From a virus: a stretch of 26,608 bases of DNA. Both the position numbers and the translations under genes were made by a program. Below, piece by piece: positions 105 to 20,697 of the stretch; the stretch's first letter is position 1; each line of letters begins with the position of its first letter. The DNA is taken from positions 1-26,608 of the IMG/VR virus record IMGVR_UViG_3300025806_000180. One strand, written 5' to 3'. The notes under the pieces are model-generated. The model had not been told where the DNA came from. It saw nothing but the letters and a program-made list of their open reading frames with translations, and did not search any database.

Positions 105-464
105 TTAGTAGCACCAAGCTACAGGAGTCTTACCATCGTGAATAGCCCGGTCGTCCACATGGATAAATGTACGAGCCACTCCAACGCCGCTAAAGCCAAG
201 GGCGAACGCCTGTTTAATAATCTCGTATCGTTGATTGCCACCAACCGCTTTGATGTCTGCTGCATAACCTTGGGCATGTGTTCCGGGTTTCTCCTTACGT
301 GCTTCTATTGAATGTGATGGGCTACGATAGCCGCTAGTAATGATGAAGGGAAACCCGCAGGCTTCCCGAAGTTCATCTAGTCTGTGGATAAAGTCCACGT
401 TCATTTTGTTTTCGCCAGTTTCTTGGCAGTTAAAGTCTTCTAGTTTAAAGTATTTAAATTCCAT
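105..464 (-). CDS. Endolysin-type peptidase M15 (D-Ala-D-Ala carboxypeptidase-like)
   Basis: This 119-aa protein is a compact M15-family zinc peptidase, the type used by many phages to cleave peptidoglycan stem peptides at lysis or during entry. Family motifs are visible in order: SGYRSP at residues 44-49, the zinc-binding GTHAQGYAAD with His63 and Asp70, and FIHVD with His102 and Asp104. The length matches single-domain phage M15 enzymes. There is no signal peptide or cell-wall-binding domain, so export would need the holin. The ATG overlaps the stop of the giant upstream gene as TAATG, and an AAGGAG lies about 10 nt upstream. The holin candidate is about 15 kb away, so the lysis genes are not one cassette. 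Family assignment is firm; the role in lysis is inferred from family and context. Confidence 0.9.
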   Translation of the reverse strand: MEFKYFKLEDFNCQETGENKMNVDFIHRLDELREACGFPFIITSGYRSPSHSIEARKEKPGTHAQGYAADIKAVGGNQRYEIIKQAFALGFSGVGVARTFIHVDDRAIHDGKTPVAWCY

Positions 465-3400
465 TATGCTACGTCTCCTTTTAAGTTAGCTCTAAGGGCT
501 GCTATTGTTCTACCGCTAGTAGGCTTAACTTTTCTTGGTTGAGTCAATAAACTAACTGGCTCGTCCTTAGCTACTTGTTGGGCTTGAGCTGAGATAACTT
601 CTCCGCCTTCAGCAAACATAGGCAGTCCTTTTTGTATATCTTTTCTCATTGCGTCTGTAATTTCTAACGTAGGCAGTGTGACTGTACTATCATTTTGTTT
701 ATACTCTACCATTTTAATTTCAACACCATACTTTTTAGCAAAGTTATTTTTCCAAAGCTTCATTAAAGTTTTGTCATAAAAGTCTAAGAACTTTTTACCT
801 TCACCAGCCTCTATGTTTTTGTTGTTGCGTTCAGCTTGCATTCGACCTGTAGTTAAAGCAACTTGGTCATATCCTTCATCTGTTGCGGTAATCATAGCTT
901 TACGAAGACCTTGTAAAGCCCAACGTTTCTCAGATTTAAACGGTAGGTCTGGTACTTTCTCAATTAATTCTTCTGCGGATTCCATTGTTGCAGAATCATA
1001 ATCTTCTCTGGTTGCGTAACCTTTTGCTTTACCCGCCTGCTGTGCATCAGACTGAATCTCGTCTATTAACAAAGTTTTGTTAAACGCATCGTCTACTTGT
1101 TCAGCATCTGCAAGTCTTACGTGAGCTACAGGGTTTGCAATGTCAGGAAAGTGAGAATGCTTATAATCTTTGTTTACTTTCTTAAACTTAGAGGGTAGTG
1201 AAAATACTAACTCACGATAGTTTAAAGTATCGGCTCCTTCAAAAGCATAGTCCAAGTGCGTTGGAATAGTAACAAAGTCTCCTCCTGTTGCGCTTCCTGC
1301 GTTAAACTCATCCATAAGCTCGTCATACATTCTATCCCAAGCCATTGGGTCATCGCTATCAAGCAAGTCATCCATCATTTCTTTTTCGAAAGGTTTGTTT
1401 TCAGTCAGCCAGTCGTCAAATAAATCAAACTCAGCATCGTCTGATAAGTCATCTAAAGGCATATCCTCGTCTACCGTTTCTTTTCTTTTTACGTGCCGTC
1501 CCACATTAACATCAAAATCAAAATCGCTTTGCCCGAAAAACTCTTGAACTTCTTCTTTTGTTACCGGCTTGTTGTTACCAAACTTTTCGGTAGCTCCTGT
1601 CCAGTCTAGTTCTTCTTCAGTTACTTTAGGGTCTTTCTTCATAGCGTTTAAATGTGCTTGACCCGGCTTAGGCTTAGAGCCTGTCAGTTTTTGTGAAGCT
1701 TTCTCTGCTGCGCTGTAGAATCCAGAAGTTTTCTTAGGTGCAAAAGCTTTTGTAATTCCGCTTACAAGGCTGCCAATTGCATAGTTCTGTCTAGGGTCAG
1801 CCGCATCAAACTTAGCTGAAGTAGTAAGTTTAAACTGTTCTGGTTCAAAAAGAATGTAAGAATATTCCGACTCTCCGTTAAAACCAAACTCAATTTCATT
1901 TTTATACTTAACAGAATCAAAACCAAATCGTTGCAGTTCTGTGCGTAAATCAATGTTCAACTCATTTTTCATTAAGTCCGTTTCTAATACATCTACTAAA
2001 GTTTCTTTAGGTCTAGTTTGAATATCCATAGCACGAGAGCGCAAAGCTTTCATTCGTTCAATAGATGCTTTAGTTACTTTACCGCCAGAATCTTCAACGT
2101 TAGTAAGCAGCTCGTTGATTCCATCCTTAGAAGCTAGAATTTTATCTCCAGCCCAAGTGTCTACAATAGTTTCTCCGTTGTACACTAAAGGTTTACGAGC
2201 ACTAATATATCCTGCTTGCATTTCATTTGCAGGAAGAACATAATCTGAGCCGTGCTTATCTTTAGCTACTTGATTAAGCTGTTCAAATTTCTTTTCGTAC
2301 TGAGTTTTTGTAGGCTTAGAGTTTTTAAAAGTTTTATATATATTTGCAGCTCTGTCAGCAGGATATAAATCAAACAACATATCTCTTAACTTAATAGTGT
2401 TTGCAACGCCTTCTGACCCGCCGTGCATTCCCATTTCTCTAGCAAACGGAAATGCTACATTAAACTCGCTAGTCTTAAAAGTTTTAATAGAGCGATAAAT
2501 TATTTCTTGAGTATCTGACTTTGCAACGTGCTTCTGCAAAGCTTTAGTTCGTTGAGCATCAGTAAGACTATCAGCTATGGTTTCTTGAGCGTCTAATCTA
2601 GGAGCTTTAAACTTACTAAAGTCTACGTTGCCATTAGCTGCAATCTTAACAATAGCATCTCTAGCAATAATAGGAGCACCTTCTTCAGAGATAAGCGGCT
2701 CTTTAGTTTTAATAACAGCAGTCAAAAAGTCGTGAGTTGCGTCTAAACTTTCTTCATCAAAGTTAGCTTTAGATGCAGCAGCTCGGTCAGCTTCTGTAAT
2801 GTTTATATTTACTTTTTCGTAAACACGCTTAACGCTTTCAAGCTCAGAAGACACAGCAAGCTTTAGAACATCTTTACTATTACCAACATCTTTAGTTTCT
2901 GCAAGCGTTTGCAGTGCAAAAATTTGGTCGTCAGTATAGCCTAAATCTCTCTGGTACTCAGCCATATTTTCACTAGCTTTAGCAGGGTCTGATTCATTTA
3001 AACCTTTTTGAAAGTTGCTATTATTTTTTGCATCGTCTAAATAGCCTAGCTTAGCGTTAAGCATTGTAGAAATATTAGCTTCTGCTAACTCGCTTGCTAC
3101 TGCTTCGTTAAGTTGTATTTTACCGCTTTGTAACTCTAGACCTACAGCGCCTTCAATTTTATTAGCGGTCTGCTGCAAAGCTTTGTCGTTAATAAGACCT
3201 TTAGTAGAACTCTTTAAAGTTCCTAGCATGTCTCCACTTAAAGCAACCGGCAAAGATTCTTCTATTGGAGCTACGTTTGGCTTTTTAAACAATCCTAAAA
3301 GTGCAGAGCTTGCTTCAGCAGCTACCTTGCCACCAGCATTAAATTGTAACGTTTTTGGTTTTTTATCAAACTCTTCAATGAATCCACCAAATACATCTTT

Positions 3401-6400
3401 CTGTGCGTCTCTTAAACTACCCTTGTATCGACGAACATTATCTTCACCAATTAAAGTGTCTCCAAAATAACTTCCAGAAAGAATAGGTACTTTACCGCCT
3501 ACTGTTGGAATAATGCCTTGTTGGATTAACTTTAACGTATCTGAGGCTGCGGGGCCAAAAGGCATTGTAGCATAAGCCAAGTTGCTTTTAGCGTACTTAG
3601 AAGCAGTTTGAGCACGTTGGAAACTATCTAGCAGTAAACCATTACCACCCCAACGAGCAACTGCGGTGCCTAAAATCTCATCTAAATCTTTACCACGTTC
3701 ACTTTCACCACCAGTACGTAAGTAGTTAGTCCATCGAGCCATACCAGTCATAATAGCTCCGGCAGCTACAATCTTACCACCGTTACGTGTAGGAGCTTTA
3801 ATAAGAGACTTAGCAGCGCCTTTCAGTACGGTGTTACTAAACGCCGCAGGATAACTAAGAAGCTGAAAGAACACAGCAGTTTTAGGGTTAGAGAACAGCA
3901 GAGGCTTTAAGCCTGACATTGCAGTAGGCTGAAGAACTACAGAGTTTGTGTAACGTGCAACGCCTCCCAAGAAATCATTCTTGTAAAAATCATCGGTTCG
4001 TTTGGCTCCGCCGTCATACCACTTAGTAGCCTGTTTAAAATCAATACCCAGCTCAGCTAGTTCGCCTGCAAGTATTTCTCCATCTCTGTCTAAAGGCTTT
4101 CCCTTATATCGTGTAGCAAGTTTTTCAATGTTTTCGTTTACAAGAGACTTGCCGCTTGAGTGAGAAACATTCTGTACAAACTTAGTCCACTGGTCTAGCA
4201 TGTTTAAACGGAAGAACTTATTACTTGCTTTCTGCAAGCCTTCAGTCATCAACTCGTCGCCTGCAAGTCTATCACCAACTTGAGCAAGTGCTTGGTCTAC
4301 GTGAATACTAAAGTCACGCATTTCTTTAAGAGCTTCGTTAGCTGTTAAGCCGTTTTTGTTCCTTAGCTCTGACTCAAGGTCTTTAGTAATACGCTTGTGA
4401 GACTGCTGCATAGCGTCTGCAAAACCTTTAACAGAGTTACGTACACCTGCTTTTTGAATGTTCAAAAATACTTCTGTTAAACTCGATACAGTTGCTAGGC
4501 CCAAAAGAGCCACACGGTTTGTAAAGCTATAAGCATCTACAGCAAGCTGTGTTTTGTTACCGTAACGCTCCATGCCTTCACCAGTTGCAGAACGATAAAG
4601 CTTTTCAAGCTGTCGTTCAATTTTAGGTGAAAACTCTTGGCCTGCTTCTTCCATTTCTTGTCTAATACGATTTACATAAAAACCTTTAAAGTCATCAAAA
4701 TTATTAACGCCTAGTACACGATGCTTAGCAATAGACTTACCTGCTTGGAAAGTGTAAGCATGTAAAGAACCAAGAACGTCGCTGTTTAAAAACTCCTCAA
4801 AGTCTGCGTCATTACCGATAGTATTAATCTTACGCTTAGCACTAAAGAAGTGTCCACCACCGCTACCTGCGTCTACTTGATTTTTTACATCAAGCATGTT
4901 TTCTACAGTAGCTTTAGCTTTAGTTCGAGTCATTCCTGCTTTTGTTACAAACTTTTCAATTAGTCCTTTTTTATTTTTTTCAATAGCGCTTCGGCTCCAC
5001 ATACGAGGAACATAGTTTTCTTGTAGTTTATCAATAATGCCAATGCTCTGAAGTTTAACACCCATTTCATTATACAGCTCTCTAGTTTCTAAAGCAGCTC
5101 TGTTAATTGCTGCATTAGTAGTATCATCGAACCCGGAATGTTTAAGAGGTTTATTGCTTCTCATGCTTTTACTTAAAGCATCATTAATGTCTGTTGCAAG
5201 TTTAGTGTCTAGCTCACTCAAAGAAAGAGAATCCACAATAGAACGGAAACGTTCGTTAAACTTACCAGTAACTTCACGCTGTACTTCAGACAAATCTTTT
5301 GCAACTACTTCGTCTTGAATTTTATATTTAATGCCAAACTCGTGGCTTAGTTTTTTCTGTAGTTGTGCGGCAGTCCCAGAAAACTTAGTTATTGGAGACA
5401 ACACGCCTGCTGCTTTGCCATAAAAGTTTCCGGTTAAATCTGAAGCTACTGTATATAGACCTTGTTTAATAGCGCTAGTACGGCCTTCAACAGTAGTTTC
5501 GTTATCTGCTGCTGCTCTAATGCGAGCTAAAATTTCTTTCTTAGTTGCTTCACCGCCACCTAAATCTTCAGCAAACTTTGTAGCTGCTGCGTCTAAAGCC
5601 TCATCATCCATATCAAAAGTACGTGCAGTCGCATCGTCAGTACCGTTTACAGTTTTAGCTGTTGCACCTTCAGGGCCGCTAATACGTAAAGCTTCATCTA
5701 CTACAGAACCGCCTGATGCAGGAATCCACTCACCTTCTACACCTTCGTCAAAAGCTTTTGAGGCTTCAGGAGCAGGAAGTTCCTTACGTGGCTCAGTTGA
5801 TTCTCTAAATGCTTTATTACCATGCTTAGAGTTTGAATATAAACCAGCGCCCTTACTAAGTGCAAAACCAAACGTACCACCTATTGCGCCACCTACAACT
5901 GTTTCTAACGCACTATAGTCTTCTCTCCCTTTAATGTCAGCAGAAATATCTAACTCTTGCATTATGTGAGAAGCAGTTAAACCATGACCTGTACCAACAA
6001 GCGTAGAAGCTTTAATAGGATTTTTAGTTGCAGCGGCTACCGAAGCTTTAACAGCTTTAGTTAATGCGTTTTGACCTGCTTGCTGTGCTGCTCGCCTAGC
6101 TGCTACAGTTGCTGCGGTTCCTGCACCAAACGTAGTTACTCCTGATAGTAGTCCACCAACAGTTGCTAAACCTTCAGGGCTAAACACTACGTCAGAAGCA
6201 TAGTCTTTAATTGCATCAAAAGTTTCGCCTGAGCCTGTTATAGAAGCTTTGTCCCAACGAGTTTTCATAACTCTGTAAGCTCTTTTAACTTCTTCTGGAG
6301 CATTTTTTAAAGAAGCAGCCAAGGAAATAGGAGCGCCTATTCGAGCTGTTAAGTCTCTCATATACTCAGCAACATCATCAGTCTGCCCGGTAGATGCTTG

Positions 6401-6622
6401 GTCAATTGCATAACGACCTACACCTTGGGTTTTAGCCAAGTAGTCTGTAAGGACTTCATAGTTTGCTAAAACAGTTTCATCGTTTTCATAATCTGTTACT
6501 GAATACTGTGATGGAATATAAGCTCCTTCTCGAACTGCTTCTTCTTGTTGAGCAGTCATGGAAGAGTCTGTTATTCCTTCAGCAGTAGAATCAAGTGCAA
6601 GTTGATATATATTATCTGACAT
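464..6622 (-). CDS. Giant internal virion protein with polyvalent-protein domains (2052 aa)
   Basis: This is the largest gene of the window, a probable virion protein ejected with the DNA. Residues 1-300 include an Ala/Gly-rich stretch near 150-260 (VGGLLSGVTTFGAGTAATVA). Around 700-960 there is a segment like the LPD38-type domain of large polyvalent proteins, with RYTNSVVLQPTA and SNPKTAVFFQLLSYPAAF. Around 1470-1595, GYISARKPLVYNGE and later FGFDSVKYKNE with YSYILFEPEQFK resemble the second half of the ART-PolyVal (ADP-ribosyltransferase-like) domain. From about 1630 to 2035 a composite domain follows: GFYSAAEKASQKL, EEELDWTGATEKF, NYRELVFSLP, LLIDEIQSDAQQAGKAKGY, ALTTGRMQAERN and GLPMFAEGG. 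This block recurs at the C-terminus of giant phage proteins. An Asp/Glu-rich stretch at about 1720-1770 interrupts it. AAAGGA precedes the ATG. No lytic transglycosylase motif is obvious. Domain names rest on remembered consensus patterns; enzymatic activity is unproven. Confidence 0.85.
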   Translation of the reverse strand: MSDNIYQLALDSTAEGITDSSMTAQQEEAVREGAYIPSQYSVTDYENDETVLANYEVLTDYLAKTQGVGRYAIDQASTGQTDDVAEYMRDLTARIGAPISLAASLKNAPEEVKRAYRVMKTRWDKASITGSGETFDAIKDYASDVVFSPEGLATVGGLLSGVTTFGAGTAATVAARRAAQQAGQNALTKAVKASVAAATKNPIKASTLVGTGHGLTASHIMQELDISADIKGREDYSALETVVGGAIGGTFGFALSKGAGLYSNSKHGNKAFRESTEPRKELPAPEASKAFDEGVEGEWIPASGGSVVDEALRISGPEGATAKTVNGTDDATARTFDMDDEALDAAATKFAEDLGGGEATKKEILARIRAAADNETTVEGRTSAIKQGLYTVASDLTGNFYGKAAGVLSPITKFSGTAAQLQKKLSHEFGIKYKIQDEVVAKDLSEVQREVTGKFNERFRSIVDSLSLSELDTKLATDINDALSKSMRSNKPLKHSGFDDTTNAAINRAALETRELYNEMGVKLQSIGIIDKLQENYVPRMWSRSAIEKNKKGLIEKFVTKAGMTRTKAKATVENMLDVKNQVDAGSGGGHFFSAKRKINTIGNDADFEEFLNSDVLGSLHAYTFQAGKSIAKHRVLGVNNFDDFKGFYVNRIRQEMEEAGQEFSPKIERQLEKLYRSATGEGMERYGNKTQLAVDAYSFTNRVALLGLATVSSLTEVFLNIQKAGVRNSVKGFADAMQQSHKRITKDLESELRNKNGLTANEALKEMRDFSIHVDQALAQVGDRLAGDELMTEGLQKASNKFFRLNMLDQWTKFVQNVSHSSGKSLVNENIEKLATRYKGKPLDRDGEILAGELAELGIDFKQATKWYDGGAKRTDDFYKNDFLGGVARYTNSVVLQPTAMSGLKPLLFSNPKTAVFFQLLSYPAAFSNTVLKGAAKSLIKAPTRNGGKIVAAGAIMTGMARWTNYLRTGGESERGKDLDEILGTAVARWGGNGLLLDSFQRAQTASKYAKSNLAYATMPFGPAASDTLKLIQQGIIPTVGGKVPILSGSYFGDTLIGEDNVRRYKGSLRDAQKDVFGGFIEEFDKKPKTLQFNAGGKVAAEASSALLGLFKKPNVAPIEESLPVALSGDMLGTLKSSTKGLINDKALQQTANKIEGAVGLELQSGKIQLNEAVASELAEANISTMLNAKLGYLDDAKNNSNFQKGLNESDPAKASENMAEYQRDLGYTDDQIFALQTLAETKDVGNSKDVLKLAVSSELESVKRVYEKVNINITEADRAAASKANFDEESLDATHDFLTAVIKTKEPLISEEGAPIIARDAIVKIAANGNVDFSKFKAPRLDAQETIADSLTDAQRTKALQKHVAKSDTQEIIYRSIKTFKTSEFNVAFPFAREMGMHGGSEGVANTIKLRDMLFDLYPADRAANIYKTFKNSKPTKTQYEKKFEQLNQVAKDKHGSDYVLPANEMQAGYISARKPLVYNGETIVDTWAGDKILASKDGINELLTNVEDSGGKVTKASIERMKALRSRAMDIQTRPKETLVDVLETDLMKNELNIDLRTELQRFGFDSVKYKNEIEFGFNGESEYSYILFEPEQFKLTTSAKFDAADPRQNYAIGSLVSGITKAFAPKKTSGFYSAAEKASQKLTGSKPKPGQAHLNAMKKDPKVTEEELDWTGATEKFGNNKPVTKEEVQEFFGQSDFDFDVNVGRHVKRKETVDEDMPLDDLSDDAEFDLFDDWLTENKPFEKEMMDDLLDSDDPMAWDRMYDELMDEFNAGSATGGDFVTIPTHLDYAFEGADTLNYRELVFSLPSKFKKVNKDYKHSHFPDIANPVAHVRLADAEQVDDAFNKTLLIDEIQSDAQQAGKAKGYATREDYDSATMESAEELIEKVPDLPFKSEKRWALQGLRKAMITATDEGYDQVALTTGRMQAERNNKNIEAGEGKKFLDFYDKTLMKLWKNNFAKKYGVEIKMVEYKQNDSTVTLPTLEITDAMRKDIQKGLPMFAEGGEVISAQAQQVAKDEPVSLLTQPRKVKPTSGRTIAALRANLKGDVA

Positions 6623-6640: not shown

Positions 6641-8707
6641 TTATGTAGCTGGAGTATGGCGGTCTGGACGCTTGCCTGTTGAAAAGTATGCTTCTTTTTC
6701 TTCGTCCGTTAAATCTGCAAGTTCGGCTTCGCCTAAAGTATAACCATATTTTTTAGTGTAAGTATTATACAAGTCGTCGTATGTTTTTTGCCTTGTGTTA
6801 ATTCTTTTTTCTAGCGCATCTATCATACCAAAAGTTACCTGACTTGTTCTATCCTTTGAAAACTTGTCAAATCTCTCTATGTCGCCGGTTAGGTTTTTAT
6901 AAGCTTTTATTATTGTTCTATATTCCTTTCGCTGTGCCCTTCTTGTCCCATCTGTATCTATTTTGTTTTCTTTATTAGCGTGTCCTGCGAATTCAGGAGG
7001 AAGGCTTAAAGGTGCTATACTTTTAACTCCGCTTACAGTTGTTGTTGTTGTATCGGTATCAGAGTCCTCATTATTATTATTATTATTACCGCTATTGCCA
7101 GAATTATTGCTTAAATATGTAAGGGCTGCTTTAACTTTATCTGAAGGAGAAAAACTTTCAAAGTCTTTAGGGTTTTTAAATATTAACTCTAAAGCATCCA
7201 TTTTAGCTTTAACTACGTCTTCGTTAAGTGAACCTGAAAAATAATTGTATCCGGGCTTACCCTTAACTCCACGCTCACCTGCTACTGTGCTGAATAAATT
7301 AATTCTTTGAGCATCATCCATGTCTACTAAAGAGTTATAAAGTTTTGTATTGTCGTCAAAAAGTCTTGCCATTGAAGTTTTACCATTTGTTAGCTTGCTG
7401 CTACTAACTAGCGTATCTATAGCAAATAAAGTCCCAAACGTATTATTATGTCCAAAAGCATTTACACCTCCTTTATTCGCTGCTTGTTCTACAGCTTGTT
7501 GAAGATATATTTTACGGCCCATCTCTGCTGAAGCCCATCCTTCGTTACGTGCAGTAATGCCAGCCATAACCATACCACGAGAAAAAGCTTCTTGCTTTTG
7601 TACTAACAAGTCTGCAAATCCGTCATCGCTATTTGATTCTAGCTTACCGTCAGTTTCTATTGAAATTCTTTCTCCAAAAACTTTATTCAAAGCTGCAATA
7701 GAATCTCCCGGTGCTTGATGAAACTCCTGTACTCCTAATGTAACTTGGTTTTTAGTCAACATACTTGCGCCAGTATTAAAATCTATACTTCTATTTTGAC
7801 TTGCTGCACTGTAAGGAACATAACTACCGTTAGGGCCGATAACGTGTACTGTTATATCAGTTACCGTTTTACCGTTTACTCGACTTTGTGTTGTAATAGG
7901 ATAACCTTTAACTGTTTCTTGCTCACCAGTAACAGGATGCGTAGTAGAAATGTCTACAGCATCACCTATAACAGGAGCTGGAACACCGGGGTCAGTAGGT
8001 AGGTTAGTAGCAACATACTTAGAAAGAACAGCGTTGCGTGTTTTCTTCCAAGCAGAACCATAGTCTTTTTGAAACTGTTTAGATTCTGTAACCATGTTGT
8101 CGTTGATTAAATTGTGTAAATCAGCGTCGGGGTCTTTACCAAACAGTCTACTTACTCCTTCACCTATAAAACCACCCACAGTTTTATCAGGCGCAGCGTC
8201 TTTTTGTTTTTGTACATACGCATCAGTGTTACCTGAGTTTAGATACTCTTGCGTAGCTGCAAACCTATCTTCAAGAGCTTTTACTCTTTTAGGCTTTAAA
8301 GCTTTAACAGATGTAGTCAGCCAGTCGTTAAAAGTAGTTTGGCTGTAACTTCCACTTGAATAAGTTTCGTGCCATTTGGCAGTTAAGCTTTCTCTTAGTT
8401 GTTTATCAGCCAAGCCTTCTATTCCACCACTTTCATTTTCAGCTTCTTGAAACATTTTAATATCTTTATTTGCTAGGTCGTAACCAGTCTTAACTGTCAT
8501 TCTTGACCGCAGCAACTGTTCGTCATTTAAGAATTTTTGTTGTCTAGATTCTAAAGCACTATTAGCCACACCAATAGCTACTTGCATACCTAACTTTTTC
8601 CAAGCGTTTCTTTTAGCGTCTTTTTTATTGTCTCTTGCTATCTTGTCGTTTCTTTCACGAATACCAGCAAGTAAACTTTGTCCATATGCAACTGAGTCTT
8701 GTTCCAT
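6641..8707 (-). CDS. Large virion-module protein of unknown function (688 aa)
   Basis: I do not recognise a named family. The N-terminus (about 1-60) is charged and helical (ERNDKIARDNKKDAKRNAWKK), followed by the short nonpolar LGMQVAIGVANSAL. The middle is a mixed-composition globular region. Residues about 530-560 form a low-complexity linker of Asn, Asp and Thr runs. A helical charged C-terminus follows (ALEKRINTRQKTYDDLYNTYTKKYGYTLGEAELADL, given here only as a landmark, about 630-665). It lies between the 204-aa virion protein and the 2052-aa giant protein, 18 nt from the latter, and has AAGGACAATAAAC before its ATG. By position it is probably an internal or ejected virion protein, comparable in place (not in sequence) to the T7 internal core proteins. 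Confidence 0.75.
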   Translation of the reverse strand: MEQDSVAYGQSLLAGIRERNDKIARDNKKDAKRNAWKKLGMQVAIGVANSALESRQQKFLNDEQLLRSRMTVKTGYDLANKDIKMFQEAENESGGIEGLADKQLRESLTAKWHETYSSGSYSQTTFNDWLTTSVKALKPKRVKALEDRFAATQEYLNSGNTDAYVQKQKDAAPDKTVGGFIGEGVSRLFGKDPDADLHNLINDNMVTESKQFQKDYGSAWKKTRNAVLSKYVATNLPTDPGVPAPVIGDAVDISTTHPVTGEQETVKGYPITTQSRVNGKTVTDITVHVIGPNGSYVPYSAASQNRSIDFNTGASMLTKNQVTLGVQEFHQAPGDSIAALNKVFGERISIETDGKLESNSDDGFADLLVQKQEAFSRGMVMAGITARNEGWASAEMGRKIYLQQAVEQAANKGGVNAFGHNNTFGTLFAIDTLVSSSKLTNGKTSMARLFDDNTKLYNSLVDMDDAQRINLFSTVAGERGVKGKPGYNYFSGSLNEDVVKAKMDALELIFKNPKDFESFSPSDKVKAALTYLSNNSGNSGNNNNNNEDSDTDTTTTTVSGVKSIAPLSLPPEFAGHANKENKIDTDGTRRAQRKEYRTIIKAYKNLTGDIERFDKFSKDRTSQVTFGMIDALEKRINTRQKTYDDLYNTYTKKYGYTLGEAELADLTDEEKEAYFSTGKRPDRHTPAT
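7038..7088 (-). repeat. Two neighbouring trinucleotide repeats coding Thr and Asn runs
   Basis: On the plus strand, four GTT units (7038-7050) and six TTA units (7071-7088) lie 20 bases apart inside the 688-aa gene. They encode a run of five Thr and a run of six Asn in a disordered linker. Repeats of this kind are prone to slippage, and changes in whole units would keep the frame. Confidence 0.85.
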
Positions 8708-8709
8708 GT

Positions 8710-9324
8710 TTATTGTCCTTCAGGTGGAGCCATTAGGCTAGGTTGTTGTGGAGCTTCGGTTTCTTCAGGTACTGGTTCTGTAGGAGGCGACAACAAGCTA
8801 TCTAGCTGTGGAAGAGCTTCCATTTCAGACTCCATCTCAGAAGTTACAAAACCTTGCGGTATAAAGTTAGCGTTCTTGGCTGATTTCCTAAGAGTTTCTA
8901 AACGGTCTTCTTCCATCTTAGCTCCAAAAACTTCATCCTCTGCGCCTTCTGAATCAATCTCAACATCTATATCTAAACGTTCAGCAAGTGCAATTAACAT
9001 ATAAGCTAAGGGTTCAGCAGTCATAAGCATCAAGTCAGGATTCATTGTGCCTTCTGAAAACTCTTTAAACAGAATAGTTTGTACCATGTTCATTACCGGC
9101 ACACCTTCTGACAGTCCCATCATAAGACTTGGATATACTTCTTCATCAGTTACAAAGTCCCACAAGTATTCATTAATCTCGTGAATATTTGTAAACTTTG
9201 GGGCTTGCTCATAAGGTGCAGGAGCATCAGGGTCGTTTGTTAAAGACTGTCCGGGAATAGGTCGTCCCATTTTACTTCTTTCAGTTTGATAGTCTTCAAA
9301 ATTAAAAGCTTCTTTTGTAGCCAT
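8710..9324 (-). CDS. Conserved marine-phage virion protein (PIPGQSLTNDP family), function unknown
   Basis: This 204-aa acidic protein has the near-N-terminal signature GRPIPGQSLTNDP (about 20-32), then FTNIHEINEYLWDFVTDEE and a helical part with GVPVMNMVQTILFKEF and NPDLMLMTAEPLAYMLIALAERL (landmark, about 112-134). I remember this combination from proteins in structural modules of many marine podo- and myoviruses, where they are annotated only as hypothetical or virion proteins. The C-terminal 60 residues are Pro/Glu-rich and look disordered. The ATG overlaps the stop of the upstream 420-aa gene as TAATG, so translation is probably coupled. The cofactor, partner and exact place in the virion cannot be read from the sequence. 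Confidence 0.8.
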   Translation of the reverse strand: MATKEAFNFEDYQTERSKMGRPIPGQSLTNDPDAPAPYEQAPKFTNIHEINEYLWDFVTDEEVYPSLMMGLSEGVPVMNMVQTILFKEFSEGTMNPDLMLMTAEPLAYMLIALAERLDIDVEIDSEGAEDEVFGAKMEEDRLETLRKSAKNANFIPQGFVTSEMESEMEALPQLDSLLSPPTEPVPEETEAPQQPSLMAPPEGQ

Positions 9325-10586
9325 TACGCCATTCCTCCTCGTCTAATATTCATTTGTTCTTGATAGATACTTGCACCATAGCCATAAGGATTTTGTTGCG
9401 TGTAAGATGTTGGGTTAATAGACATCTGCATTGCTCGGTCATTTATTTCAGGAGAACCGTAGTCTCGAATACCAGCAGACTGATAAGCTTCGACATAAGT
9501 GCCGTAGCTTACAGGAGCTTCTGGAACTTTTACGATTCCGGCTTCTTGAGACAAGCGTGTCGTAACATCTTGTTTTAGCTGCGCTCCTACATCTGTAATT
9601 GCTTCAACACCATAATCTAAAGCTTCGTCTGTAAGTGCTCGACCTAAAGACCTTCCGTCTTTAAACTCTGTGTACTTTTCTTTTACAGCGTCCACAGCTT
9701 CGCCGGGAAGTGCAGCTATTTTCTCGCCAAAAGTTTTTTCTACAGCTTTTGTTTGGAACTCAATAGGGCTTTTAACAGTCCCTGAGTAAGAGTCTATAGT
9801 GCTTTGTATATTATTTATACCGCCTTTAGCATCGCCCAGATTTGAAAAGTCAACTTCGCCGGTAGGCTTAAAGTTTTCAAAAGATTTGCTTATATTATCT
9901 ATACCGCCTTCCATGCTTTGAGGGTCTAAAAGACTTCCTCCAGTCCTACCAATTTGTCCCGGAATAGTTCCGTCGCCAGTTAAGCCTGTAGCCTTGTCAA
10001 TAACGTTTTGTTGCTTAGCTGTAAATATTTTCTTAGCGTTTCCAAACTCTTCAAGACCGCCATTAAAAGCTTCAGTAATAGCGTTAATGTTTTTATCAAT
10101 ACCTGATTGCACTGTGCTCCAAGCAGACTTACCTGTACTTGAGTCTACAAAAAAACTATCCGAAGCATTAGCAAGCTTAGGAAACATCTTTTCCATACCG
10201 GGGATTTTCTTTAGTGCAGTTTTAGTAAACTCACCTAAAAAACTAGATACTCCGTCAGTTACTGTTTTAAAAGCCGATGTTCCTGCTTTTGCAAACTTAG
10301 CGCCTGACTGAAGAATTTTACCCGCTGTTTGTGCAAGCTTACCGCCTTTAGCTAGAAACCCTGTTACACCTTTAAAGGCTGTGCCGATAGAAGCAGAAAA
10401 GCCGTTGGCTAACATCCCTCCTATTCCCGGAAGAATAAAAGCCAAGCCAAGTTGACCTACAATGCCAATCTTGTTCATAAATTTACCAAAACTTTTAAAG
10501 GCTGACTTAATACCTTTACCAATTTTCTTGAAAGCGCTTTTAACTCCGCCTTTAATTTTTTTCCAAGCTTTGCTGAGAAATCCCAT
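9324..10586 (-). CDS. Virion protein with Lys-rich amphipathic N-terminus, possible membrane-active ejection protein
   Basis: This is a 420-aa protein. Its first 40 residues contain 12 Lys and no acidic residue, with Phe, Trp and Ile spaced every 3-4 positions (MGFLSKAWKKIKGGVKSAFK and onward), which would form strongly basic amphipathic helices. Residues 40-60 are hydrophobic and Gly-rich (IGIVGQLGLAFILPGIGGML), and a second Lys/Ala/Gly helical region runs to about 120. The rest is less biased, with SYGTYVEAYQSAGIRDYGS near the C-terminus. Similar 'MGFL..W..IK..KK' proteins occur in marine phage structural modules. The N-terminus resembles membrane-active peptides, so a role in DNA ejection through the inner membrane is plausible but inferred. 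AAAGGTATTAAA precedes the ATG. Confidence 0.75.
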   Translation of the reverse strand: MGFLSKAWKKIKGGVKSAFKKIGKGIKSAFKSFGKFMNKIGIVGQLGLAFILPGIGGMLANGFSASIGTAFKGVTGFLAKGGKLAQTAGKILQSGAKFAKAGTSAFKTVTDGVSSFLGEFTKTALKKIPGMEKMFPKLANASDSFFVDSSTGKSAWSTVQSGIDKNINAITEAFNGGLEEFGNAKKIFTAKQQNVIDKATGLTGDGTIPGQIGRTGGSLLDPQSMEGGIDNISKSFENFKPTGEVDFSNLGDAKGGINNIQSTIDSYSGTVKSPIEFQTKAVEKTFGEKIAALPGEAVDAVKEKYTEFKDGRSLGRALTDEALDYGVEAITDVGAQLKQDVTTRLSQEAGIVKVPEAPVSYGTYVEAYQSAGIRDYGSPEINDRAMQMSINPTSYTQQNPYGYGASIYQEQMNIRRGGMA

Positions 10587-10622
10587 TTTAATACCTTTAG
10601 TTTTAATTAGTTATTTAGATGT

Positions 10623-13600
10623 TTATTTAGATACTTCATCGACCCACTTATAAGCGTCTGCACTATTCTTTTCTGCAATCTTTTCATTACCAATTGCTGT
10701 TGCAGTTAATTGAGCTTTACGTTGCTTTTCATTTTCAAAAGCTTGACGAATATATGCTGCTTCGTCTCTAAGCTGCTGCCATACCTGCGTCAACTCTTGT
10801 GACGTTAAGTTAAAAGTCATTTGAGCGTTTTGCATGTTAGCAGCATTTTGCGCTGCGGTATCAGACAAGTTGGCTTGTCGTCGCCACTGCTTATTAGATT
10901 GCTCAACTGCCTGTGCGTTTGAAGCGTTCCACTGGTCTCGTGCTAAGTCTTGAGTCTCGTTAAACTTTGCAATGTCTGTTTCGAGCTGTGCGCTAAACTG
11001 TTCAGCTTGTAGTTTATTGCCTGCGTTTAAAGCTGCAATACGGTTCTTTTCAGTAGTATTGAATTGGTTTCTAGCTGAGTTAGCTGTCGAATTATACTGG
11101 CTAATCTGCGTATTAAGATTCTGCATAAACTGGTCAGCTTGCTGTTGATTGGCTGCGTTAAACTGTCTAGCTGCGTTTGTCGCAGACTGGTCGCTTAACA
11201 TAGCTTGTTGTTTCTGCTGAGCTGATAATATAGTTGCTTGCTGCTCGTTATTTAAATTAGCCATATCCATCTGCAAGAAAGCCTGTGCGTTTTGAACTGC
11301 AAGCTTAGCATTCTTATCTAGATTAGCTAAGTCCAGTGAAGCCATTGAACTAGCGTTTAGCATAGCGGCTTGTTGGTCAGCATTAAACTCATTAGCTACC
11401 ATAGTTTGCATAAACTTACTGTTAGTCAACTCAACTTGCTGAGCTGCGTTAAACTTAGCTAAATCAATTCCAGCATTAGTTTGTGCGTTTACAACTGCTC
11501 GTTGTTGGTCAGCATTTAACTGAGCTTGGTTCATCTCAGAAGCAATCTTACCTTGAAGTAAGTTAGTTTGCAAGCGCTTGTTAAGATTAGCTAGTTCTGT
11601 TTGCTGTGCGGCATTTAAGTTGTCTGAAGATGCTTGGTTTAGAGCAGACAGATTAGCTAAACGCATCTGTTGGTCATTGCTCAAGTTAGCTAAGTTCATC
11701 TGTTGCTCAAACTCTGCATTCTTAGACAAGAAGTCTGCTGCAATTTGTTTGTCCTGAGACGTAGCGTTTTGAATAGCGGCAGCATTATTTTGAGCAATAG
11801 GCAGAGCACTTTGAATAATAGCATTAAACAAAGCATCACGACCAATGCTAGAGGCACTCATACCACGCTTAGCTAAATTACCTTCAACCTTAGCAAGAAT
11901 TGGTCTAGCCCATGCAGGTATTTCGCCATCTTCCATACCTGCCATCAAAGATTCCATCTGAGCACTCATCAAAGCTTCTTGAGGCAAGCCAGACAAAGTA
12001 GTCTTAATATCTTCTGGAAGGCTATCCATTTCATCAGCAATTAACTGAGGATTATCTGCAAGACGCTTAGCAATTTCTTCGTCTTTTAAGCCTTGGTTTC
12101 TTAGGTTCTTAACTACGTTGTCTTTACTAATCTTACGTTTTTCAAGCTGGTTGTACTCATACATACTCATAATTTCAGCAGCTTCGCCGTCTGGAGCAGG
12201 CTCGCCTGTGATAGCTTCACGAGTTTTTGCTTCAGCGTCTGCTGTTTCAGCTACAGTAGCTTCTTCACCAGTTACTTTTTTAACATAAGAAGCTTTATTA
12301 ACATCATAAACTACTTCGTTAGCCAGAGCTTCTGCTTCTGCTTCTTCGTCTCTTTTAGCAGCTTCAGCTCTTTCTGTAAGTTCAGCATCATCTAACTCTG
12401 CTTGAGCTTCATCGCTTACTGTGCCTTCAGCTCCTACAACAGCGTCTGGTGTGCCTACTGTTTTGGCGTTTACTTTAGCGGCTGTGTTATCTGTAATAGC
12501 GTCAACTTCGTCTACTTCTTTTTGCTGTTCTGCTATGACTTCGTCAGCTACAACACTTTCTGCTGTAAGCACTGAAGCATCGTCAAGAGTTTGAGTCTCT
12601 TCTTCTGAAGTTGTAGTAAGCGCTTGTCTTTCTGCTGCATCACCAAACTCTTCATCCCACTCATACTTATCTTTAAGATAGTCTGTACTTGTTTGACCGC
12701 CTCTATATGTATTAGGGTCTGGAGCATCTGGAATAATATCACTAGCTCCACTTGTTTCTACTTCAACTTCTGGAGTATTGTAGCCCGGCCCAGTTACTTT
12801 TACAAGAGGTTCGCCAGATTTGCCCTTGCCTACAACATCAACCGACCCTTCGCCCACGTTTCTGTCGCCATCTACAGAACCAGTTTGAGTTGAACGACCG
12901 TAACCTGTACTTTCTTCTTGATTATTTGCCACACTATTTACCTTTGTTATTGCGCTTCCGGCAGGAGATTGACCTGCCGTAGAATTAGGCGTTCCACCGG
13001 GGCCGCCTCTACCTTGTGTTCCGCCCATATTACTATAGCCACCGCCACTTAAAATTTCAGAGCCATCTGGCAGATTAACTGTCCACTCCGGTGGGTCTCC
13101 GCTTTCCCAGTTTGCAGGGTTCCAAGGGTTTTCATCCCACGAGCCAATAAACTCACCTATGTCATTAAAGAGAGTGCCGTCAACAATAGAAGCCCCCACT
13201 CTAATAGTAGGAGACATCATTGCTATGTCTTTAATGCCTGACCAAAGCTTTGCAAACGTGCCTTCGCCTTCAACAGACATGTCCATGTTTTCGTCATATT
13301 CAGCCTGCGTAGAACCGTCTTGACCTACAGCACCGGGGCCAGAAGGTCTCCAGTCAGGGTCTCCTGAAGGCCCGGCATCTACGTCACTGTCTTTACGTGC
13401 GCCTTTTTGTGGAAGAGGCTTCTGCTCATACACTGACTTGTTGTTGTCGCCAAAACGAGCGTCAGCGTTTCCTGTGCTTTTGCCAGTTTCTTTTCCTGCG
13501 TCAGCGCCTTCAGCTTCAGGTTGAGTTTCTTGCTCTGAGGGAGCTAAAGGTTCTAAAGGCTGCGACTCATATACAGGAGCTGAACCATCTTTACCTTCGC

Positions 13601-14039
13601 TTACAAGCACAGCATCTTTAGGAGTGTTTTCTTCTTCCCATGCAGCTAAATCGTCTTTATAGGCTTTACTTGTTTTGCCACCCGGGTAGTCATTAGCGTT
13701 AGGCTTACCTAGCTTTTCGTCTAACTCTTCTTGTTCTTCTTTTTCTTTTTTCTTTTTCTTCTCTGTCTTTTTTGACTTAGTTTTCTTCCCGCCAGAATTA
13801 CCTGCGCCTGAAGGAGCTTTAGGGCCGGGGCCACCCGAAGTGCCTCTCGAAGGGCCTCTAGGCTCGTAGCCACTCATATCTACACCACCACCGGAGCCAC
13901 CTCTGCTTCCTGTTACAATGACTTCATTTACAGGAGCGCCGCCACCACCACCGACACCACTGTATCCGCCAGAATTAAGTTTAAGACGTTTAGCTTGTAA
14001 TTTTTTTAAAGCTTTAGAGGCTCTAGTTGATTTAGACAT
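10623..14039 (-). CDS. Large helical-repeat virion protein (1138 aa)
   Basis: The N-terminal 120 residues combine Gly-rich stretches with a Lys/Glu-rich block (KKTKSKKTEKKKKKEKEEQ, about 83-101). The region to about 640 is low-complexity, acidic and probably disordered. It contains a duplicated short motif: PNANDYPGGKTSKAYKDDL near 113 and PDPNTYRGGQTSTDYLKDK near 437. From about 640 to 760 it looks globular (AEIMSMYEYNQLEKRKISKD; IPAWARPILAKVEGNLAKRG). From about 783 to 1067 it is built of 22-residue Gln/Asn/Ala-rich helical repeats. It starts within the last 8 nt of the glycosyltransferase gene, after AAAGGAACACATAA. I recognise no named family. Its place among internal/ejected protein candidates and its rod-like repeats suggest a structural or ejection role, which is inference. 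Confidence 0.8.
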   Translation of the reverse strand: MSKSTRASKALKKLQAKRLKLNSGGYSGVGGGGGAPVNEVIVTGSRGGSGGGVDMSGYEPRGPSRGTSGGPGPKAPSGAGNSGGKKTKSKKTEKKKKKEKEEQEELDEKLGKPNANDYPGGKTSKAYKDDLAAWEEENTPKDAVLVSEGKDGSAPVYESQPLEPLAPSEQETQPEAEGADAGKETGKSTGNADARFGDNNKSVYEQKPLPQKGARKDSDVDAGPSGDPDWRPSGPGAVGQDGSTQAEYDENMDMSVEGEGTFAKLWSGIKDIAMMSPTIRVGASIVDGTLFNDIGEFIGSWDENPWNPANWESGDPPEWTVNLPDGSEILSGGGYSNMGGTQGRGGPGGTPNSTAGQSPAGSAITKVNSVANNQEESTGYGRSTQTGSVDGDRNVGEGSVDVVGKGKSGEPLVKVTGPGYNTPEVEVETSGASDIIPDAPDPNTYRGGQTSTDYLKDKYEWDEEFGDAAERQALTTTSEEETQTLDDASVLTAESVVADEVIAEQQKEVDEVDAITDNTAAKVNAKTVGTPDAVVGAEGTVSDEAQAELDDAELTERAEAAKRDEEAEAEALANEVVYDVNKASYVKKVTGEEATVAETADAEAKTREAITGEPAPDGEAAEIMSMYEYNQLEKRKISKDNVVKNLRNQGLKDEEIAKRLADNPQLIADEMDSLPEDIKTTLSGLPQEALMSAQMESLMAGMEDGEIPAWARPILAKVEGNLAKRGMSASSIGRDALFNAIIQSALPIAQNNAAAIQNATSQDKQIAADFLSKNAEFEQQMNLANLSNDQQMRLANLSALNQASSDNLNAAQQTELANLNKRLQTNLLQGKIASEMNQAQLNADQQRAVVNAQTNAGIDLAKFNAAQQVELTNSKFMQTMVANEFNADQQAAMLNASSMASLDLANLDKNAKLAVQNAQAFLQMDMANLNNEQQATILSAQQKQQAMLSDQSATNAARQFNAANQQQADQFMQNLNTQISQYNSTANSARNQFNTTEKNRIAALNAGNKLQAEQFSAQLETDIAKFNETQDLARDQWNASNAQAVEQSNKQWRRQANLSDTAAQNAANMQNAQMTFNLTSQELTQVWQQLRDEAAYIRQAFENEKQRKAQLTATAIGNEKIAEKNSADAYKWVDEVSK
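10838..11689 (-). repeat. About twelve 22-residue (66-nt) tandem protein repeats
   Basis: Inside the 1138-aa protein, anchors such as LSNDQQ, LNAAQQ, LNADQQ, FNAAQQ, FNADQQ, LDKNAK and LNNEQQ, then FNAANQ, YNSTAN, LNAGNK, FNETQD and SNKQWR recur. Within each series they fall exactly 22 residues apart. An 11-residue half unit (GKIASEMNQAQ) sits after the second unit and a 9-residue spacer before FNAANQ. A 22-residue period is two 11-residue hendecads, as in long straight helical rods or amphipathic sheets. The copies have diverged at DNA level, so the repeat is ancient or under protein-level selection. Confidence 0.85.
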
Positions 14040-18272: not shown

Positions 18273-19925
18273 TTATCTCCTGCCTGCGGGAACGTAATTA
18301 ATATATAAACCGTTAATGGTATATGGTGAAAGTTGGTCTTCGCTACTTATTTTATAAGCACTAGAGTAACAGCTCCCCTGAACCGGCTGGCGTATAAGGG
18401 GGTTGTCTGATGCTCCAAAATAAGATGTAAAAGTGTCGTTGCTAAATCTACTTACTCCAAACTCTGCAACTGGATAAATAGAGGGTAGTGTATAAGTTGG
18501 AGGCTGCTGAATATTAGTGTCTTCAAAATCAAAAGCAACACTAAGCTTAGGCTCTGCTGCAACTGTAATATTGTTGTCGTCGGGAGTCGCTGAGATTTTA
18601 ACGTACTGAATAGTTTTACGTGTACCCATATCACCAAAGTCTAAAGAAGGTGACTGATACTCTGCTTTAATATTAGTGTCTGTTCCAGAATGAACAAACT
18701 TATTTCCTGAATCGTGGATATAGACTTGTCCGAGCCTATCACCGTGATAAGCAGCTTCTCCTCCTCCAGTGCTTAAAAGTTCTGAAGTTGATGCAACAGA
18801 TTCAATACCGCAGGTTTCAGACCACTCGTAACCTTGCCCTGTAAATGTTCCAATAATTCCTCTAGTTATTGCTGGCGCTTGGCCTGCTTTATTATAGAAT
18901 AAACGATACTGAGATTTGTTACGTAAAACTAAACTTGAAATAGTATATGGAACAGTAGAGCGTGTAATTCTTGAGATAATATTTTGGATATTTCTACTTA
19001 CTGACGTAAGCTCAACGTCATCAATTCGAGACGTACCTGCTAATGTTCGGATTCCGTCGGGAGCTAAAAATACTAAGTCGCCGCCAATTTCTTGAATACT
19101 GAACTGGTCTACGCAACCTATATTTTTTGTAATAGGAACCACGGCTGTAGTAGCGTCAGCAGATTCTAAATTAACTACTTTGTAAATACTATTCTTGCAG
19201 AATACAATTAAGTCACCACGAAAACTTTTTAGTCCTACAACTCTATCAGCCAGTCTTATTGCGTTTGAGCCTGTGCCTGAAAAATTAGGTACGTCATTTA
19301 GGGTGCTAGTGTATATTTCATTCGGGTCTAAAGCTGTTCCCCCTACTACTAACTGTTGTCCGTGGATTGTAGATGTTGAGGATGCGACAAGAGTTTGATG
19401 AGAATGGTCTACTAAAGGGCCTGAAACATATCTACGAGTAGCGTCATTGATTGCGTCTGTGCCTGTAGTATAGAAGTAAAAAGGAGCATTAACACCGTCA
19501 CAAATAACTACTTCGCCGTAAGGAGATAAGTTTCCTTCATATATTGAAATAGAGCATTGACCTTGGGCTGTACGTGCATCTACTGATTGGGCAGTAAATT
19601 CAGCATAAGTTTTTGCTCCTCCGCTAATAACTCCTCTGTTAATCTGTAGCCAAGCAACAAAATCAGGAGTCCAAAAAATCCCTGTTCCACTACAGACTAA
19701 TAGCCCTCCTGCATAAGCTACCATGCCTAAGATAGTGTTATTACCATTAGGCTTAGAGACACCTGCGACAAGAAACCCATTGATACGTCGATAGCCGCCG
19801 TCGGGGTCTACTTCAAAGTTAATTAACTCTGTAGCAGCTCCGGGCTGTTGGAGCAGTTCAAGCTGACTAAGGTTGGTATTAAGACCACCTTTGCACGAAA
19901 AACCATACGGTTGGGAAGCTGCCAT
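18273..19925 (-). CDS. Tail / stabilisation protein (P22 gp10-like)
   Basis: This 550-aa protein begins MAASQPYGFSCKGGLNTNLS and continues with ELINFEVDPDGGYRRINGF. That 'GG(L/I)N......G.A..L.N(F/Y)....G..R..G' opening is typical of phage stabilisation proteins that close the head-tail connector. The body is beta-rich with propeller-like repeats, for example VVGLKSFRGDLIVFCKNSIY and SIQEIGGDLVFLAPDGIRTL, each a landmark for the 'G..L.VF....IY.V' motif. It ends TINGLYINYVPAGRR. It follows the adaptor gene by one base and precedes the tail fibre, the expected order for connector, nozzle and fibre. It may equally be named tail tubular protein B-like, since the two groups occupy the same position. 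Fold-level assignment is good; the precise homologue is less sure. Confidence 0.78.
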   Translation of the reverse strand: MAASQPYGFSCKGGLNTNLSQLELLQQPGAATELINFEVDPDGGYRRINGFLVAGVSKPNGNNTILGMVAYAGGLLVCSGTGIFWTPDFVAWLQINRGVISGGAKTYAEFTAQSVDARTAQGQCSISIYEGNLSPYGEVVICDGVNAPFYFYTTGTDAINDATRRYVSGPLVDHSHQTLVASSTSTIHGQQLVVGGTALDPNEIYTSTLNDVPNFSGTGSNAIRLADRVVGLKSFRGDLIVFCKNSIYKVVNLESADATTAVVPITKNIGCVDQFSIQEIGGDLVFLAPDGIRTLAGTSRIDDVELTSVSRNIQNIISRITRSTVPYTISSLVLRNKSQYRLFYNKAGQAPAITRGIIGTFTGQGYEWSETCGIESVASTSELLSTGGGEAAYHGDRLGQVYIHDSGNKFVHSGTDTNIKAEYQSPSLDFGDMGTRKTIQYVKISATPDDNNITVAAEPKLSVAFDFEDTNIQQPPTYTLPSIYPVAEFGVSRFSNDTFTSYFGASDNPLIRQPVQGSCYSSAYKISSEDQLSPYTINGLYINYVPAGRR

Positions 19926-19926
19926 A

Positions 19927-20697
19927 TTATACGAATCTCATTCTGTCGTCAGTCATATAGAAGGGAGTAGGCTCAATAAGATTAGAGCGCATACTGTCGA
20001 GTCCTTTCTTGTAATCATCTAGTGCGAATGCTGCTGCTTGTGGATTGTCTTTAAACTGCCAGATGTAGTATCGAGCACGAGCTAGTAATACAACAGAGTA
20101 CATCTCTGGGAATACAATCTCGTCACCGAAGCTTACAAGCTTTGTAGGGAGGTTGTAAGCATAGAACCATACACGGTATACTTTATCTGGGATTGGGCTT
20201 AGGCCGAACTTACGTGCGTCTGGGCTACGTATAACTCGGTCTGGTTCGCCGTATGATTGTGTGTCTGCATCGTCTAAGTTTTCTCCGATGCGACGAAAGC
20301 TTTTCCACTCTTGGGTGGTTGTAAATCGTAAGTTGTTACCTACATAGGGTGCAGTTTCGCCTGCTACGTCTACTGTAGTGATATAGAAGTTATCCCAGTC
20401 AACTGAACCGTAATCATCTTTGATGGAATCACTAGAAGCTTTTAGCTCATAATAACGCTGTCCTGCAACGGTCTCTACATATACATTACCATACATGGGG
20501 TCAACTTCACCACTTTCGCCAGCAGTTAGAAAAGGCCATTGAGGTTCTTGGTTGATAATATCAAAGTACGCTTTATTTAGAGAATCTTTAACGTGCGCCT
20601 GTACACCGATAGCTGTAGAAAAGTTACCTGATTCAAGAGGTACTTCGTTTAGCTCTCGGAGAAGCTCATTGGTTAAGTCTAGGTAGGTTGTTGCCAT
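19927..20697 (-). CDS. Head-tail adaptor (tail tubular protein A / gp4-type)
   Basis: This 256-aa protein opens MATTYLDLTNELLRELNEVP and continues with VKDSLNKAYFDIINQEPQWPFL, a helical pattern shared by the adaptor proteins that bind below the portal (T7 gp11 and P22 gp4 groups). The middle has QRYYELKASSDSIKDDYGSVD and FRRIGENLDDADTQSYGEPDR. The final third includes the helical VLLARARYYIWQFKDNPQAA and FALDDYKKGLDSMRSNLIEP, again usual for this family. Its gene is the first after the capsid gene and its terminator, and is followed by the tail/stabilisation gene one base later. Only a weak ribosome site (AAAGG about 12 nt before ATG) is seen. It should form a ring of about twelve copies linking portal and tail nozzle. 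Confidence 0.85.
   Translation of the reverse strand: MATTYLDLTNELLRELNEVPLESGNFSTAIGVQAHVKDSLNKAYFDIINQEPQWPFLTAGESGEVDPMYGNVYVETVAGQRYYELKASSDSIKDDYGSVDWDNFYITTVDVAGETAPYVGNNLRFTTTQEWKSFRRIGENLDDADTQSYGEPDRVIRSPDARKFGLSPIPDKVYRVWFYAYNLPTKLVSFGDEIVFPEMYSVVLLARARYYIWQFKDNPQAAAFALDDYKKGLDSMRSNLIEPTPFYMTDDRMRFV

What the first reader, a model, noticed from the sequence alone, without database searches (positions are those of the whole stretch)
464..2000. Giant protein carries a polyvalent-type C-terminus, including a partial ADP-ribosyltransferase-like segment
YISARKPLVYNGE followed about 100 residues later by FGFDSVKYKNE and YSYILFEPEQFK matches the second half of ART-PolyVal domains; the usual N-terminal half with its His motif is not obvious to me. 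It is followed by the IDEIQSD / TTGRMQAERN composite domain frequent in huge phage and conjugative proteins. Such proteins are proposed (Iyer and colleagues, polyvalent proteins) to enter the host with the DNA and act on host targets or defences. This one may therefore be an effector delivered at infection.
Basis: partly seen in the sequence, partly recalled or inferred. Interest (0 to 1): 0.7.

Follow-up and report, generated by a model that had tools for sequence, protein, structure and literature searches.

The report
Phage ejection protein with enzyme-like tail
The tail end of a giant protein, probably carried inside a short-tailed virus of bacteria and pushed out with its DNA, is built from two modules shaped like enzymes that tag other molecules, but the active site of the first has been rewired, so whether it still works as an enzyme has to be tested.

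Summary
Residues 1368-1620 of the 2052-aa ORF (464-6622, minus) form one complete domain starting at base 2521, outside the stated 464-2000. Its AlphaFold model (pLDDT 85.6) matches ADP-ribosyltransferase (ART) folds over its full length; the best match is a domain of the cyanophage A4 pre-ejectosome protein, which has the usual H-Y motifs. Pfam ART-PolyVal hits 20 of 40 relatives (best 7.7e-7), though not the window protein. The "missing" first half is present but altered: strand-1 His is Arg (34/39) or Asn (5/39), strand-2 Tyr is His (40/40), the Asp of GFDS is kept (40/40). So it is an ART fold with an R-H-D site, not an H-Y-D family member.

The "IDEIQSD/TTGRMQAERN" domain models as a GNAT acyltransferase fold (50 of 50 listed structural matches), but its acetyl-CoA loop is not conserved.

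The protein lies in the internal-virion-protein cluster. In six relatives the ART part is a separate gene directly downstream of the core gene, and the GNAT-like module has been exchanged between close relatives. Delivery with the DNA is likely; an active effector is unproven. LysM modules beside it in relatives hint at an envelope role.

The parts
464..6622 (-). Giant ORF, 2052 aa, probable internal virion (ejection) protein
   Evidence: ORF; phrog_7348 and phrog_6958; tblastn to podophage structural proteins
3623..4825 (-). Core region, residues 600-1000, best conserved part, shared with phage virion proteins
   Evidence: 63-78% identity to ten relatives; core profile found in 71 ORFs of the fetched loci
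1763..2521 (-). ART-fold domain, residues 1368-1620
   Evidence: Alignments A2/A3; Pfam in relatives; model; VIA-align
2492..2494 (-). R1377, strand 1, where the canonical ART has His
   Evidence: R 34, N 5 of 39; strand 8-12 of the model
2423..2425 (-). H1400, strand 2, where the canonical ART has Tyr
   Evidence: H 40 of 40; strand 32-35 of the model
1916..1918 (-). D1569 of GFDS at the start of strand 5, canonical Asp position
   Evidence: D 40 of 40; strand 203-207 of the model
587..1264 (-). GNAT-fold domain (IDEIQSD/TTGRMQAERN composite), residues 1787-2012
   Evidence: Alignments A4/A5; model pLDDT 91.2; 50 of 50 listed VIA rows are GNATs
105..464 (-). M15-type peptidase gene, start overlaps the giant's stop
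   Evidence: phrog_894 endolysin 2.2e-29; also downstream in many relatives

Best explanation
The ORF is the giant core protein of a podovirus internal (pre-ejectosome) complex. It is packaged in the head and ejected with the DNA, in the way known for T7 gp16 and N4 vRNAP. Its first ~1100 residues are the ejection part; the rest is exchangeable cargo: an ART-fold domain with a rewired R-H-D site, then a GNAT-fold domain. After ejection the cargo refolds and modifies or binds host (or phage) components early in infection. Shown here: ORF, core homology, both folds by prediction, altered catalytic positions, gene splitting, module exchange, purifying selection. Inferred: packaging, delivery, NAD+ or acyl-CoA binding, catalysis and targets.
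For: Gene order portal, major capsid, tail, amidase/IVP, fibre-like, large proteins, giant ORF, M15 peptidase. Core shared with podophage virion proteins. Best fold match of the ART-like domain is residues 1419-1600 of 9k3a_B, cyanophage A4 pre-ejectosome (Z 6.3, 4.8 A, 137 aligned); 9k3a_B is Anabaena phage A-4L ORF27L over all 1717 residues, which reads LYHGT...GTYFS...GVDALT and lies in a similar gene order. In six relatives (L041, L048, L053, L064, L074, L075) the giant is split near window residue 1100-1200 into a core gene and an ART gene; in five the next ATG is 2-10 bases after the core stop codon, in L075 the genes overlap. The GNAT-like module was exchanged: L004 v L016 synonymous distance 0.23 in the core, 0.18 in the ART, 1.57 in the GNAT-like domain, and the trees disagree. 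The ART-like domain is under purifying selection, dN/dS 0.05-0.37 in six pairs.
Against: H and Y of the H-Y-D site are absent in all aligned relatives. Foldseek found no PDB match with E<=0.001 for either model, and VIA Z of 4-8 is modest. The GNAT acetyl-CoA loop is not conserved. LysM-type motifs follow the ART domain in at least 14 of 39 relatives, suggesting a periplasmic place for part of this region. The core and ART profiles do not find A-4L ORF27L by sequence.
Confidence: 0.55

Rival explanations
1. Same ejection protein, but the ART- and GNAT-fold domains are no longer enzymes: they are building blocks of the pre-ejectosome or of the trans-envelope channel, or ligand-free binding domains.
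For: H-Y lost in strands 1 and 2; acetyl-CoA loop not conserved; the A4 ART domain is an ordered part of a solved pre-ejectosome; LysM-type motif right after the ART or GNAT-like domain in at least 14 of 39 relatives and an M15 peptidase gene next door.
Against: Position-specific conservation of E1396, H1400, D1569, Y1573, N1575 and E1578 (all 40 of 40) at 20-37% overall identity looks like a site; modules come as separate genes or are absent and exchanged, which fits cargo better than scaffold.
Confidence: 0.33
2. A canonical, active ART-PolyVal effector that ADP-ribosylates host proteins, as first proposed.
For: Pfam ART-PolyVal matches in 20 of 40 aligned sequences; ART fold; canonical H-Y motifs in the A-4L counterpart.
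Against: 0 of 39 relatives have His in strand 1 and 0 of 40 have Tyr in strand 2.
Confidence: 0.07
3. A lysis or cell-wall enzyme ('endolysin'), as the phrog_7348 label says.
For: phrog_7348 label, E=0; LysM-type region in the longer relatives; M15 peptidase gene downstream.
Against: The window protein stops before the LysM region and no Pfam or NCBIfam peptidoglycan-hydrolase domain was found in it.
Confidence: 0.03

Closest known systems
Anabaena phage A-4L (cyanophage A4) ORF27L, pre-ejectosome protein, PDB 9k3a chain B
   Same: Similar late-gene order; giant internal protein with an ART-fold domain near the C-terminus; best structural match
   Different: Keeps LYHGT and GTYFS (canonical H and Y); no sequence-profile match to our core or ART family; 1717 aa and no GNAT-like module found with our profile
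ART-PolyVal (PF18760), prototype in the Roseovarius Plymouth podovirus 1 vRNAP
   Same: Strands 3-4 (GYI.VKNPL like VDLQKPMEI), GFDS like GYDG, last strand; ART fold
   Different: R-H-D instead of H-Y-D; long helical insert before strand 5
RimI-like GNATs of polyvalent proteins (Iyer et al. 2017, PMC5512222, section 11 read)
   Same: GNAT fold in the same phage polypeptide as an ART-type domain
   Different: Not recognised by any Pfam GNAT model, no conserved acetyl-CoA loop; whether it is the same family as BAR32501.1 was not tested
N4 vRNAP (gp50) and T7 gp16, ejected giant core proteins
   Same: Giant virion protein with N-terminal ejection part and C-terminal cargo (passages of PMC12633501)
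   Different: No RNA polymerase or transglycosylase domain was found in the window protein

Membership tests
ART-PolyVal (PF18760, H-Y-D clade) | Sequence match to the family model over its cut-off | tested here: inconclusive
   Window: no match. Aligned sequences: 20 of 40 at E<=1, best 7.7e-7; four relatives scanned singly score 17-23 bits against a cut-off of 31.2
ART-PolyVal (PF18760, H-Y-D clade) | ART fold | tested here: met
   Model pLDDT 85.6; all 16 VIA rows spanning residue 1 to 233-235 are ART-fold proteins, Z 4.1-6.3; viral library lists proteins named PolyVal ADP-ribosyltransferase at E 0.029 and 0.8
ART-PolyVal (PF18760, H-Y-D clade) | Histidine in strand 1 | tested here: not met
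   R 34, N 5, H 0 of 39
ART-PolyVal (PF18760, H-Y-D clade) | Tyrosine in strand 2 | tested here: not met
   H 40 of 40; strand assignment from the model
ART-PolyVal (PF18760, H-Y-D clade) | Aspartate in strand 5 | tested here: met
   D of GFDS 40 of 40
GNAT acyltransferase superfamily | GNAT fold | tested here: met
   50 of 50 listed VIA rows are GNATs, best Z 8.1, 126 aligned at 3.6 A; Foldseek best E 0.026, an acetyltransferase
GNAT acyltransferase superfamily | Q/RxxGxG/A acetyl-CoA loop after strand 4 (motif recalled) | tested here: not met
   Window reads QQAGKA but relatives read HQAGSK, HQTATG or SQAISR; the invariant residues there are E.Q.D
Polyvalent protein | Two or more unrelated functional domains in one large protein encoded with late virion genes | tested here: met
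   Virion core, ART-like and GNAT-like domains, late-gene block
Polyvalent protein | Delivered into the host with the DNA | not testable with these tools
   Needs virion and infection proteomics
Podovirus internal core (ejection) protein | Homology and gene position | tested here: met
   phrog_6958, KPP25 and LUZ24 structural proteins; gene order like A-4L
Podovirus internal core (ejection) protein | Present inside the virion | not testable with these tools
   No proteomics at hand

The most novel reading that the evidence does not exclude
An ART-fold enzyme family with a rewired R-H-D active site, coupled in one ejected podovirus protein to a previously unrecognised GNAT-fold family (the 'DEIQSD' domain). 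The two are injected as an exchangeable two-enzyme cassette that uses NAD+ and acyl-CoA on host targets or defences in the first minutes of infection.
Probability: 0.25. Interest if true: 0.75.

Novelty: new variant of a known kind. Interest (0 to 1): 0.5.

Why it matters
It turns a vague 'polyvalent C-terminus' into two testable modules with named residues. It gives a fold to the DEIQSD domain, which occurs in several phage giants and for which no Pfam model matched. It links ART-type cargo to the podovirus ejection machine, where a version with canonical motifs sits in a solved pre-ejectosome protein. If active, R-H-D would be an unusual ART chemistry; if inactive, it would show enzyme folds re-used as parts of an ejection machine.

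Tried and rejected
LPD3 as the identity of the second half: E 0.11-0.14 only, one member. SirC_C match in 4-5 members of the IDEIQSD alignments (best 1.3e-4): not seen in the window protein and not matched by the fold; set aside as chance or as belonging to an insert, not resolved. Sequence search of the PDB with the ART or GNAT-like profile or the whole giant: nothing relevant. A relative of the ART domain in cellular genomes: 10 pattern matches, 0 confirmed. Profile comparison of A3 with single A-4L and RPP1 sequences: no significant match, so the strand equivalences to them rest on the model's strands and on reading the motifs. An automatic MAFFT alignment placed the RPP1 YHGT against strand 2 instead; I judged this wrong because a helix follows strand 2 at once in the model, as it seems to in the canonical sequences. 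That is an inference, and a larger canonical ART-PolyVal alignment was not built. Adaptive evolution of the ART domain: no sign, dN/dS below 1 in all six pairs. VIA rows with helical bundles (residues about 107-203 only) were treated as noise from the helical insert. The LysM count used a strict motif and misses at least L069, where NCBIfam shows LysM-type matches. Rows dropped before the 40-row alignment: near-identical copies, partial copies (for example L022, L079, L083) and L082, which holds unknown bases.

Full report
What is there. The window is the whole of a 26,608-base virus record. Read on the minus strand it holds a late-gene block: portal (24204-26381), major capsid protein (20769-21743), tail protein (19927-20697), an amidase with a weak internal-virion-protein match (18273-19925), a fibre-like protein (15551-18268), several large proteins mostly without families, the 2052-aa giant (464-6622), and an M15-type peptidase whose start overlaps the giant's stop (105-464). 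The giant matches phrog_7348 (labelled endolysin) over residues 32-1886 and phrog_6958, a virion structural family, over residues 703-945. tblastn finds parts of it in 84 phage records, including KPP25 and LUZ24 structural proteins. It is therefore most likely an internal virion (ejection) protein. The 'endolysin' label probably comes from the C-terminal LysM region of longer relatives, which the window protein lacks.

The observation. All five motifs are present, but the first lies at about base 2209 and the module starts at about base 2521, outside the given interval. Relatives were gathered from viral contigs. After near-identical, partial and ambiguous copies were left out, 40 sequences including the window's were aligned. 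The conserved unit is residues 1368-1620, including the part upstream of YISARKPLVYNGE. The 15 invariant columns include E1396, H1400, GFDS, Y1573, N1575 and E1578.

ART or not. Pfam finds no ART-PolyVal in the window protein, but matches 20 of the 40 aligned sequences at E<=1, best 7.7e-7. The AlphaFold model has pLDDT 85.6 and pTM 0.81, with strands at 8-12, 32-35, 100-106, 111-114, 203-207, 220-224 and 230-232 and a helical insert before the fifth. Foldseek against the PDB gives no E<=0.001. VIA-align puts at the top residues 1419-1600 of 9k3a_B, cyanophage A4 pre-ejectosome (Z 6.3, 4.8 A, 137 aligned). The other rows that span the model from residue 1 to 233-235 are MbcT, NatT, tankyrases, PARP4, ARTD2 and an anti-CRISPR (6kyf; recalled to be the ART-fold AcrIF11). 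In all, 16 of the 50 rows are ART-fold; the rest are mostly helical proteins on the insert. In the viral library three models reach E<=0.001, none with a useful name, and proteins named PolyVal ADP-ribosyltransferase appear at E 0.029 and 0.8. Taken together the ART fold is well supported, though each Z is modest.

The active site. Iyer and colleagues describe these ARTs as H (strand 1), Y (strand 2), D (strand 5) (passages of PMC5512222). 9k3a_B is Anabaena phage A-4L ORF27L, full length; its domain reads LYHGT...GTYFS...GVDALT. The RPP1 prototype reads LYHGT...GLFFT...GYDGA. In our family strand 1 reads YR (R 34 of 39) or YN (5 of 39), strand 2 reads GxHVGT (H 40 of 40), and the Asp of GFDS is 40 of 40. 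The window residues are R1377, H1400 and D1569. The strand assignment is an inference from the model: one automatic alignment preferred another register for RPP1, and profile comparison with single canonical sequences was not significant. By the membership test this is not an H-Y-D ART-PolyVal; it is an ART-fold family close to it with an R-H-D site. It is not decaying: dN/dS is 0.05-0.37 in six pairs of relatives.

The IDEIQSD domain. A model of residues 1787-2012 with 38 aligned sequences has pLDDT 91.2 and pTM 0.87. All 50 listed VIA rows are GNAT acyltransferases: the C-terminal domain of M. tuberculosis ICL2 (Z 8.1, 126 aligned, 3.6 A), AtaT, TacT, KacT, Elp3, Naa10 and others; 352 of 998 chains reach Z 5. 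Foldseek's best PDB match is also an acetyltransferase (E 0.026). No related Pfam family was matched. The acetyl-CoA loop motif is not conserved: the family instead keeps E.Q.D after the strand, and a nearly invariant Tyr and invariant Asp further on (Y163, D164 of the domain). The same domain occurs in Pseudoalteromonas phage PH1 (one copy) and Dolichospermum phage Dfl-JY45 (two copies in a 2407-aa ORF).

Modularity. In six relatives with the same core (L041, L048, L053, L064, L074, L075; L045 is like L041) the giant is split at about window residue 1100-1200. In five of them the core gene ends and the next ATG follows 2-10 bases later in another frame; in L075 the genes overlap. In L085, L089, L091, L092 and L094 the ART gene follows a 1245-1288-aa or similar ORF that the core profile does not match. 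Between L004 and L016 the synonymous distance is 0.234 in the core and 0.178 in the ART, but 1.574 in the GNAT-like domain, and its tree contradicts the core tree; this is module replacement. The window's ART region has diverged fast (33% to L004, core 78%, GNAT-like 77%) but groups with L018 as the core does, while its GNAT-like domain groups with L003/L004.

How it may work. Shown: a virion-type core, two enzyme-type folds at the C-terminus, and splitting and exchange of these as cassettes. Inferred: packaging, ejection, refolding, catalysis. By analogy with N4 vRNAP, whose domains are thought to refold in the cytoplasm (passages of PMC12633501), the pair would act on NAD+ and acyl-CoA in the cell. 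The main reasons for doubt are the altered sites in both domains and the LysM-type motif after the ART or GNAT-like domain in at least 14 of 39 relatives, which places this region near peptidoglycan at some stage. A scaffold role therefore remains a serious rival.

Literature. Polyvalent proteins, their ARTs and ART-GNAT neighbours are known (passages and section 11 of PMC5512222; passages of PMC9503650). Passages of PMC10386132 and PMC12810830 were seen too. I saw no paper on an R-H-D ART family or on a GNAT fold for the DEIQSD domain in searches, which cover only the held open library; the cyanophage A4 paper was not held.

Noticed in passing
464-6622 (minus), label phrog_7348: The family label 'endolysin' would mislead annotation: the window protein ends just where relatives such as L004 start a LysM region and about 450 further residues.
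   Followed up: yes
GNAT-like domain in L013, L097, L099, L101 and others: Many relatives carry inserts of about 35 and 80 residues inside the GNAT-like domain that the window protein lacks; L003 lacks the longer one, which may be what matches SirC_C.
   Followed up: partly
L003 9224-10244: The giant ORF of L003 ends at 2105 aa and a 338-aa ORF follows at once, either a real split or an assembly frameshift.
   Followed up: no
22698-24146 (minus): A 482-aa ORF between portal and capsid genes whose residues 323-454 resemble parts of tail tape measure and endolysin families, unusual for that position.
   Followed up: no
6641-14039 (minus): Proteins of 1138, 420, 204 and 688 aa upstream of the giant have no or only weak family matches; they are candidates for the other ejection proteins.
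   Followed up: no
L178 2166-9389: A 2407-aa ORF of Dolichospermum phage Dfl-JY45 carries two copies of the GNAT-like DEIQSD domain.
   Followed up: no
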